Assembly (NCBI RefSeq): GCF_000014065.1
Contig: NC_008044.1
Location: forward strand, 2,751,501 to 2,815,500
Length of the DNA: 64,000 nt
From: Ruegeria sp. TM1040
Lineage (GTDB): Bacteria > Pseudomonadota > Alphaproteobacteria > Rhodobacterales > Rhodobacteraceae
Direction: 5' to 3'
The translations under genes were made by a program, and so were the position numbers. The notes below the pieces were generated by a model. That model ran no database searches. It saw nothing but the letters and a program-made list of their open reading frames with translations, and was not told where the DNA came from. Positions 48,835 through 49,914 of this stretch are shown here, piece after piece. Within the stretch, counting starts at the first letter, position 1, and each line of letters begins with the position of its first letter.

Positions 48835-48949
48835 GCCCTGTCCCCGTCCAGCCAGACACGCAGCGCCCCATAAAATATGGGCGTATTGGCTTGCAATCGA
48901 CTCTGGATCTGCATAAACGAGGCGATCTTTCGCGCTCCTGAGGGGGCGC

Positions 48950-48980
48950 ACAAGTCTCCGCGACCTTGTCTAAAAAACGG
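48950..48980 (+). promoter_or_regulatory. Candidate preQ1-I-like riboswitch
   Basis: P1 ACAAG (48950-48954) pairs with CTTGT (48965-48969). The loop holds TCT, then CCG (48958-48960), then CGAC. After P1 comes CTAAAAAA (48970-48977) and CGG (48978-48980), which can pair with the loop CCG as P2. This is the H-type pseudoknot order of preQ1-I, including the A-rich third strand. It ends eight bases before the ATG of a queuosine-precursor transporter, and the CGG lies where the SD should be, so ligand binding could block translation. Confidence 0.6.
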
Positions 48981-48988
48981 TACTGTAC

Positions 48989-49621
48989 ATGACCCGCACC
49001 TATCTTCCTGGCGTTCTCGCCATGGCTGCCGTTGTGGTGGCCTCCAACATTCTCGTGCAATTCCTGTTCGGCAACTGGCTGACCTGGGGCGCGTTTACCT
49101 ATCCCATCGCTTTCCTCGTTACCGATGTGACCAACCGCGTCTATGGCGCAGGCCCCGCGCGCAAGGTCGTGCTGGCCGGGTTTGTGGTCGGCGTGATCTG
49201 CTCGCTCATTGGCACGCAGATTATGGGCGAGTTCGGCCCGCTTGTGACCCTGCGCATCGCGGTGGCCTCTGGTCTGGCGTTCCTTTTGGCGCAGCTCACG
49301 GATGTGGCGATCTTTGCCAGCCTGCGCGGCGGCAAATGGTGGCGCGCGCCGTTGGCCTCGACGCTGATTGGCTCTTCGCTTGATACCGCGATCTTTTTCA
49401 CCATCGCCTTCTCCGGCGCGCTGACCTTCCTTGAGCCCGCAAATGACGTCTCCTGGGCCGGTGAAATGCTGCCGCTTCTGGGCGCTGGTCCGGTTGCGCC
49501 CCTGTGGGTGTCGCTCGCCGTGGCCGACTGGCTGGTGAAACTGTCGCTGGCGCTGATCGCGCTGATCCCCTTCCGCCTGATTGTTGCGCGTTTAACGCAG
49601 GGCCAACCCAGCAAAGCGTGA
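48989..49621 (+). CDS. Queuosine precursor transporter (YhhQ/VUT family)
   Basis: A 210-residue membrane protein with about six helices. SNILVQFLFGNWLTWGAFTY then PIAFLVTDVTNRVYG is the YhhQ signature, and SSLDTAIFFTIAF is also typical. It takes up preQ0/preQ1 or queuine for tRNA modification. The ATG follows a preQ1-I-like pseudoknot and lacks a strong free SD, consistent with regulated translation. Confidence 0.9.
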   Translation: MTRTYLPGVLAMAAVVVASNILVQFLFGNWLTWGAFTYPIAFLVTDVTNRVYGAGPARKVVLAGFVVGVICSLIGTQIMGEFGPLVTLRIAVASGLAFLLAQLTDVAIFASLRGGKWWRAPLASTLIGSSLDTAIFFTIAFSGALTFLEPANDVSWAGEMLPLLGAGPVAPLWVSLAVADWLVKLSLALIALIPFRLIVARLTQGQPSKA

Positions 49622-49687
49622 TTTCGCGCGAATTTCATTTGGAGATCCGACTTTTCCGTGCCAACCTGAAGGCAACAGAAACAGAGA

Positions 49688-49705
49688 GAAAAGGAGGTGA
49701 TCCAG
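49688..49705 (+). promoter_or_regulatory. Extended Shine-Dalgarno, full complement of the 16S rRNA 3' end
   Basis: GAAAAGGAGGTGATCCAG is complementary, over at least 15 bases, to the CTGGATCACCTCCTT that ends alphaproteobacterial 16S rRNA. Ordinary SDs here are 4-7 bases. The AGGAGG core is seven bases from a GTG at 49705. Confidence 0.75.
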
Positions 49706-49761
49706 TGTCAAGAAAGGGATTGGAGCAAGGAGCAGCAACCACCGGAGCGGTCCGCCACTGA
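49705..49761 (+). CDS. Possible 18-residue micro-protein or leader peptide
   Basis: GTG start, encoding VSRKGLEQGAATTGAVRH (M at position 1 if initiated) and a TGA stop. Support is the extreme SD spaced seven bases away and the terminator 120 bases downstream. No signal or membrane segment. An alternative is that the region is a non-coding RNA that pairs with 16S rRNA or titrates ribosomes. Confidence 0.4.
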   Translation: MSRKGLEQGAATTGAVRH

Positions 49762-49883
49762 GGCAGCCCTCTCTGGCAGCGGCCAACCGGCTGGGTCTGC
49801 ACAGGCTGATACTGCCTGATACTGCGTCAGGAGAAACTGAAGTGACAGCGCCCTAACCTGCCTTTGCTCTCATAGACTTTCGG

Positions 49884-49914
49884 AAGGGCCGCGCCTTATG
49901 GGCGTGGCCCTTTT
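49884..49914 (+). terminator. Terminator of the micro-ORF transcript
   Basis: AAGGGCCGCGCC-TTAT-GGGCGTGGCCCTT stem with G-U pairs, followed by TT. It ends a transcript upstream of arfB. Confidence 0.75.

What the first reader, a model, noticed from the sequence alone, without database searches (positions are those of the whole stretch)
48950..48989. preQ1-I-like pseudoknot directly in front of a queuosine-precursor transporter
ACAAG/CTTGT forms P1, the loop CCG can pair with CGG after an A-rich CTAAAAAA strand, and the loop keeps the GACC element; this is the H-type pseudoknot order of preQ1-I. It lies upstream of a YhhQ transporter and overlaps the only SD-like bases, so a translational preQ1 switch fits well. 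The P1 stem and linker bases differ from the textbook consensus, so it may be a diverged subtype.
Basis: partly seen in the sequence, partly recalled or inferred. Interest (0 to 1): 0.72.

Follow-up and report, generated by a model that had tools for sequence, protein, structure and literature searches.

The report
Compact preQ1-I-like riboswitch before yhhQ
A roughly 30-base RNA pseudoknot in front of a queuosine-precursor importer gene looks like a small, divergent preQ1-I riboswitch that hides the ribosome-binding site, and it recurs in relatives across one bacterial order although the standard RNA database model misses it.

Summary
In detail: ACAAG/CUUGU (P1), CCG/CGG (P2) and a CUAAAAAA strand lie at 48950-48980, 8 nt before the ATG of a YhhQ-family transporter. 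It is not chance: the 80 best-matching yhhQ loci fetched all carry it, and a model of the element, searched without the protein, led to yhhQ in 21 of 21 loci checked. The class-I pocket bases are present. The same genome's queC leader carries a Tte-like type II preQ1-I element, and relatives have one before queF. A translational preQ1-I riboswitch is by far the best reading; ligand binding is untested.

New here: the yhhQ element is a compact variant (26-30 nt from the CAAG core to CGG; 31 in the window with its fifth P1 pair). P2 is contiguous Watson-Crick with a covarying fourth pair. P1 is weak and preceded, mostly without linker, by a hairpin P0 of variable sequence (70 of 81 leaders) that begins near the predicted transcription start; 10 of 13 queC leaders tested lack it. 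Rfam RF00522 misses the element, but also misses the crystallised E. coli type III element. I file it as a new variant of a known kind.

The parts
48891..48919 (+). predicted sigma70-type promoter, -35 TTGCAA (48891-48896), 17-nt spacer, -10 TAAACG (48914-48919); start predicted by rule of thumb near 48926
   Evidence: TTG-N20-TA at this distance in 71 of 81 leaders; 0-3 in eight control windows that do not overlap; sequence
48932..48949 (+). hairpin P0: GCGCUCC / UGAG / GGGGCGC, ends at the base before P1
   Evidence: hairpin score >=14 in 70 of 81 leaders versus 1-8 at shifted positions; 53 distinct arm pairs
48950..48954 (+). P1 5' strand ACAAG (the last G is the G5 equivalent)
   Evidence: 4-bp core pairs in 81 of 81, outer pair in 31 of 81 including the window
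48955..48960 (+). L1 UCU and P2 5' strand CCG (positions 6 to 11 by Tte numbering)
48961..48964 (+). L2 CGA plus specificity base C (48964, position 15)
   Evidence: pocket roles from PMC10622847 sections 8 and 9
48965..48969 (+). P1 3' strand CUUGU
48970..48977 (+). L3, A-rich CUAAAAAA
48978..48980 (+). P2 3' strand CGG, containing the only SD-like GG seen before the start
   Evidence: CCG/CGG pairs in 81 of 81; sequence
48989..49621 (+). yhhQ, queuosine (preQ0/preQ1) precursor transporter, 210 aa
   Evidence: TIGR00697 and Vut_1

Best explanation
A translational preQ1-I-type riboswitch. The yhhQ transcript is predicted to start at or just before hairpin P0. P0 stacks on a weak P1, and P1 carries an H-type pseudoknot. 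When preQ1 (or preQ0) is plentiful it sits between P1 and P2, read by C48964, U48955 and the L3 adenines, and stabilises P2 (CCG/CGG). This hides the only SD-like bases, 8 nt before the ATG, and turns importer synthesis down. Shown here: the sequence, its conservation, covariation, gene context, the sister queC/queF elements, and only 8 nt between P2 and the ATG, which leaves no room for a terminator. Inferred: ligand, direction of control, coaxial stacking, transcription start.
For: 81 of 81 leaders; 21 of 21 model-found loci precede yhhQ; descriptor enrichment. Core pairs kept 81/81; 4th P2 pair covaries, 55/81 paired versus permutation mean 38, largest 48 of 2000; on alignment A2, 0/500 shuffles reach the covariation score or the percentage paired. 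CGAG/CUUG wobble variants. Loop size and pocket bases match Tte type II as described in PMC10622847 section 9 and PMC11625349 section 4. Own queC leader carries UCCGG-UCGCAG-CCUAC-CCGGA-CAUCAAAA-CAAGG; of 26 R2 matches in the order search 21 precede queC by N-terminal motif and 5 precede queF (the 4 of those 5 tested are QueF by TIGR03139). Own genome encodes QueC and Tgt. E. coli uses a preQ1-I type III element on yhhQ (PMC10622847, abstract and sections 2 and 4).
Against: RF00522 gives no hit at this site. P1 core and CCG/CGG are nearly invariant, so most pairs offer no covariation; the outer P1 pair forms in only 31 of 81; 'further pair types' is reached by 271 of 500 shuffles, and the counts do not correct for relatedness. 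In nested folding P1 is in the minimum-energy structure in only 10 of 81, and CGG is unpaired in only 13 of 81: P2 alone (median -1.8 kcal/mol) outcompetes P1 alone (median +0.4; in the window P1 -1.3, P2 +0.3), so P2 might partly form without ligand in many relatives. The SD is weak (GG). Of 15 no- or weak-hit order genomes that have yhhQ, 6 leaders lack a descriptor match. No binding or expression data.
Confidence: 0.92

Rival explanations
1. A riboswitch of this fold whose natural ligand is preQ0 (or queuine) rather than preQ1.
For: YhhQ is reported to import preQ0 with preference over preQ1, and Tte type II binds preQ0 only 17-fold more weakly than preQ1 (PMC10622847 passages); the L2 base before the specificity C is C instead of A in 12 of 81.
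Against: The bases expected to read the guanine-like face are those of known preQ1 switches; the same genome's queC element looks like a standard type II; nothing here separates the two ligands.
Confidence: 0.12
2. The CAAG-N10-CTTG repeat is a DNA operator for a transcription factor, not an RNA structure.
For: The P1 arms are nearly invariant (CAAG in 78 of 81), as expected of an operator; CATG/CATG keeps the dyad.
Against: CGAG/CUUG variants break the DNA dyad but keep a G-U RNA pair; the base after CGG covaries with the loop; the motif lies downstream of the predicted start; the sister queC/queF elements share the RNA skeleton.
Confidence: 0.03
3. An RNA leader read by a protein or by temperature, without ligand.
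For: P2 without P1 is predicted in many leaders; P0 is an unusual addition.
Against: Full set of preQ1-I pocket bases and queuosine gene context.
Confidence: 0.03

Closest known systems
preQ1-I type II (Tte, Bsu; Rfam RF00522)
   Same: H-type pseudoknot; AC before the P1 3' strand; U after P1, C7, G11-C30, A14 and the C before the P1 3' strand at Tte spacing (5 nt between G5 and G11, 4 nt between G11 and C16); A-rich L3; SD-like bases in P2
   Different: P2 is contiguous Watson-Crick NCCG/CGGN instead of the CGCAG/CAAGG type with non-canonical purine contacts; P1 4-5 bp and weak; L3 6-9 nt counted after the 4-bp CUUG; 26-30 nt from CAAG core to CGG; P0 hairpin abuts in most; no RF00522 hit
preQ1-I type III (E. 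coli yhhQ)
   Same: same gene, pyrimidine-rich loop, two C-G pairs to the SD-like GG, AC before the P1 3' strand
   Different: U-C not U-U after P1 here (U-U in 7 leaders of one genus and in the degenerate L157); loop G11-C30 instead of U11-A28; tail ACGG not AAGG; shorter linker; reported almost exclusively in gammaproteobacteria (PMC10622847 section 2)
queC and queF preQ1-I elements of the same order (own genome G000:C3:2152651-2152684; L193-L218)
   Same: G-UC-N-C-N-G ... AC-C ... AAAAC skeleton; SD-like tail 5-10 nt before the first start codon taken in the queC cases
   Different: own queC has a strong CCGG P1 (-5.3 kcal/mol); CAAGG or CAGG tail; no abutting hairpin found in 10 of 13 queC leaders tested

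Membership tests
preQ1-I class | H-type pseudoknot P1-L1-P2-L2-P1'-L3-P2' in that order | tested here: met
   81 of 81 leaders; the descriptor also finds the E. coli type III element and a recalled Bsu 34-mer
preQ1-I class | specificity C immediately before the P1 3' strand, U after the P1 5' strand, G-C closing P1 | tested here: met
   81 of 81 leaders matched an expression that demands them, none failed; the expression was written after reading the leaders
preQ1-I class | A-rich L3 before P2' | tested here: met
   ends in AAAA or longer in 81 of 81
preQ1-I class | in front of queuosine synthesis or uptake genes | tested here: met
   TIGR00697; 21 of 21 loci found by the RNA model alone precede yhhQ; single site in own genome
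preQ1-I class | binds preQ1 | not testable with these tools
   needs in-line probing or ITC
preQ1-I type II | AC before the P1 3' strand | tested here: met
   window GAC; A at that place in 69 of 81, C in 12; rule read in PMC11625349 section 4
preQ1-I type II | C7, G11-C30 ceiling and A14 as in Tte | tested here: met
   window has all; C7 in 73 of 81, G11-C30 in 81 of 81; roles read in PMC10622847 section 9
preQ1-I type II | full published type II covariation model | not tested
   consensus figures not shown and the 2014 source paper not held
preQ1-I type III | U-U after the P1 5' strand and AAGG tail | tested here: not met
   window U-C and ACGG; U-U in 7 leaders of one genus and L157, with ACGG tail there too
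Rfam RF00522 model | score at or above gathering (39 bits) | tested here: not met
   no hit; the positive control, the E. coli type III leader L081, gives no hit either, and the own queC element also is not reported, so failure does not exclude the structural class
preQ1-II and preQ1-III classes | larger HLout pseudoknots (58 nt, passage; 100 nt, passage) | tested here: not met
   no Rfam hit and an H-type element of about 30 nt

The most novel reading that the evidence does not exclude
A fourth preQ1-I architecture, on yhhQ of Rhodobacterales: the smallest natural preQ1 aptamer so far (26-30 nt), whose P1 is too weak to fold alone and is buttressed by a 5'-terminal hairpin P0 that stacks on it, possibly tuned to a different preQ1/preQ0 preference than the type II elements on queC and queF in the same order.
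Probability: 0.5. Interest if true: 0.65.

Novelty: new variant of a known kind. Interest (0 to 1): 0.5.

Why it matters
It would extend preQ1-I control of yhhQ, which for type III is reported almost exclusively from gammaproteobacteria (PMC10622847), to a large alphaproteobacterial order, and would give a minimal aptamer in which the need for an added helix can be tested directly. One genome holds two architectures of one aptamer class, on synthesis (queC) and on uptake (yhhQ), a natural comparison of ligand preference and P2 design. It also suggests that RF00522 undercounts preQ1-I in Proteobacteria.

Tried and rejected
Rfam as a test: no preQ1 hit at this site; not taken as evidence against because the E. 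coli type III leader is missed too. In one search the E. coli control genome rings somewhere at E<=10, place not shown; only 1 of 14 control genomes is over the cut-off. Other alphaproteobacteria: model R1 in 289 class genomes gave 3 matches at E<=0.01, two in the same family and one (L105) inside an ORF that reads by eye like dxs, hence chance. That threshold also missed the window's own element (E 0.026), so this search cannot exclude long-L3 forms. 30 correctly oriented yhhQ leaders from other families gave no descriptor match, and 20 more gave one (L146) that I take as chance. In one search the minus-strand loci among L106-L135, and those among L156-L177, were read in the wrong orientation; one search replaces those rows. 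One search used a P2 register one column off; one search replaces it. Two rows with 21-22 nt between CGG and the assumed start (L030, L076) were kept in all counts. Nested folding does not favour P1 and is reported as evidence against. Of the R1 matches in 218 of 244 order genomes I checked 21 loci for yhhQ (20 and one, L104); the others were not inspected one by one. The 7 weak-hit genomes were chosen by me.

Full report
What is there. The downstream gene is a queuosine precursor transporter (TIGR00697 96.6 bits over its 50.95 cut-off, Pfam Vut_1). The genome is 4.15 Mb in 3 contigs; it holds one model match at E<=10, this site (24.6 bits, E 0.026), one yhhQ, one QueC over the cut-off and one Tgt.

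Conservation. All 80 leaders carry (C)CAAG-UCnCCG-CnAC-CUUG-nnAAAA-CGG or a near variant, with CGG 7-12 nt before the start in 79 of 81 including the window. A more general descriptor of preQ1-I pseudoknots (G-U after P1, C before P1', A-rich L3, three Watson-Crick P2 pairs), written after seeing the leaders, finds 80 of 80 leaders and 61 other sites in 1,022,436 strand-bases; it also finds the E. coli type III element and a recalled B. subtilis aptamer, and 3 other sites in the window. A covariance model (R1) matches 218 of 244 genomes of the order at E<=1. Of 21 model-found loci read (20, one), 21 have yhhQ 4-11 nt further on. At E<=0.01 it matches 3 of 289 genomes of the class, two of the same family and one judged chance; this threshold misses the window's own element, so the search is not sensitive to long-L3 forms. 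Of the 20 listed no-hit order genomes (6 more were not listed) 11 lack yhhQ and 9 have it; of 7 weak-hit genomes that I chose 6 have it. In these 15 leaders 9 carry a descriptor match, 7 of them a diverged CGAG-UU...UCCG...CUUG-UAAAA-CGG form of one genus; 6 do not, one of which (L157) looks like a degenerate copy. In 30 yhhQ leaders of other alphaproteobacterial families there is no descriptor match, in 20 more one that I take as chance.

Structure evidence. The P1 core pairs in 81 of 81, with a compensatory CAUG/CAUG in 2 and a G-U wobble form CGAG/CUUG in 1 and in the diverged genus; the outer P1 pair forms in 31 of 81 (permutation mean 21.4, 1 of 2000 as high). P2 CCG/CGG is invariant; the fourth pair is U-A 31, C-G 17, G-U 7, unpaired 26 (55 of 81; permutation mean 38, largest of 2000 was 48). 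On 38 aligned leaders (30 distinct rows; from the 54 with a 6-nt L3, leaving out 5 with a shorter L1 and 11 similar rows), 0 of 500 shuffles reach the covariation score or the percentage paired, 15 reach the number of pairs with a change on both sides, and 271 reach the number of further pair types. These counts do not correct for relatedness. The window itself has U-U at the fourth pair.

Hairpin P0. Directly 5' of P1 lies a hairpin (window 48932-48949, 7 bp). A perfect hairpin of score >=14 ends within 3 nt of the pre-P1 base in 70 of 81 leaders, against 1 to 8 at shifted positions and 5 to 11 in base shuffles. It has 53 distinct arm pairs, and its 3' end is the pre-P1 base in 56 and one base before it in 11 of the 70. 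In the 7 diverged leaders it is also there without linker, score 13-21; in L159 and L161 it scores 10 and 12. A TTG-N20-TA promoter dyad lies at one place in 71 of 81 leaders; in the 80 with enough upstream sequence it is 70, against 0-3 in eight control windows that do not overlap and 4 in one that overlaps slightly. With the start taken by rule of thumb 12 nt after the TA, P0 begins a median 1 nt after it in the 62 leaders with both; in 6 of the 62 it begins before it. In the window the distance is 6 nt by my count. P1 alone is weak (median +0.4 kcal/mol; window -1.3), whereas P1 of the own queC element is -5.3. Of 13 queC leaders tested (of 21) 10 have no such hairpin and 3 have one (scores 13, 15, 15; offsets 1, 3, 3). 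My inference is that P0 stacks on P1 and compensates for its weakness; protection of the 5' end is an alternative.

Sister elements. RF00522 searched in 41 genomes (own and relatives) gave no match over the cut-off; 22 had some match at E<=10, many of them noise, but 6 congeners matched at 21-32 bits (cut-off 39) in front of queC. The own genome gave none, yet its queC leader has the same element, UCCGG-UCGCAG-CCUAC-CCGGA-CAUCAAAA-CAAGG. A model of it (R2) matches 23 of 121 order genomes at E<=0.01. Of the 26 matches 21 precede queC, named by its N-terminal motif, and 5 precede queF (the 4 of 5 tested are QueF). The outer P1 pair occurs as A-U, U-A, C-G and G-C, and is mismatched in some (L203, L213). 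The short queF form (CCGG-UCGCAG-CCCAC-CCGG-ACAAAA-CAGG, L217) is intermediate in tail and L3 length between the queC and yhhQ forms. This common skeleton is the strongest reason to call the yhhQ element preQ1-I.

Comparison. By Tte numbering the window has U6, C7, G11-C30, A14 and C15 with type II loop sizes. The roles of C7, G8, C9, A10, G11-C30 and A14, and the G5-C16 pair, were read in PMC10622847 (outline, passages, sections 2, 4, 8, 9) and PMC11625349 (outline, passages, section 4); the numbers U6 and C15 and the Tte sequence itself are recalled. The element differs in having a contiguous Watson-Crick P2. Type III marks (U-U after P1, AAGG tail) are not met. PMC10622847 calls the E. coli element (36-mer wild type) the smallest natural aptamer; the forms here are 26-30 nt from the CAAG core to CGG, 31 nt in the window with its fifth P1 pair. 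The 2014 survey of preQ1 classes is not held, so I cannot exclude that some of these sequences were seen there. Searches for preQ1 and riboswitch with yhhQ, Rhodobacter, alphaproteobacteria and Roseobacter listed no paper on this element; three of the listed papers were checked by passages.

Mechanism. With 8 nt between P2 and the ATG, and with the only SD-like GG inside P2, translational repression is the natural reading. Caveat: in nested folding P2 forms more readily than P1 (CGG unpaired in only 13 of 81, P1 present in 10 of 81, P0 in 65 of 81), so ligand may act by locking a partly formed P2; in the window itself P1 is the one predicted.

Noticed in passing
window 49690-49761, + strand; same place in relatives: Downstream of yhhQ a very strong SD (AAAGGAGGTGATCC, complementary to the 16S 3' end as I recall it) precedes a GTG/ATG mini-ORF of 18 codons (window GTG 49705 to TGA 49761). 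AAGGAGGTG lies within 420 nt of the yhhQ stop in 73 of 80 leaders with enough sequence (window included), and the ORF is 18 aa in 67 of the 73.
   Followed up: partly
window 49681-49911, + strand; L001, L004, L005, L010, L014, L026, L046: The same stretch matches the Caulobacter sRNA family CC2171 (RF01867) below threshold: window 26.2 bits, 7 of 9 relatives scanned 27-39 bits (cut-off 75). Possibly a dual-function RNA; a later anti-SD-like CACCTCC, CCACCTC or ACCTCCT is seen in 43 of the 73.
   Followed up: partly
G000:C3:2152651-2152684 (-), outside the window; L193-L218: Tte-like type II preQ1-I elements before queC and queF in the order; those scored with RF00522 in congeners are below its threshold.
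   Followed up: yes
L010, L011, L025, L026, L032, L044, L047, L054, L055, L065, L072, L078 leaders: 12 of 81 yhhQ leaders have C instead of A at the L2 base before the specificity C; 5 of them also lack one L1 base.
   Followed up: no
L004, L008, L033, L034, L043, L050, L066, L068, L080 leaders: In the 9 leaders with G at N8 and G after CGG, the next base is C, so N8 could pair with it past a bulged G.
   Followed up: no
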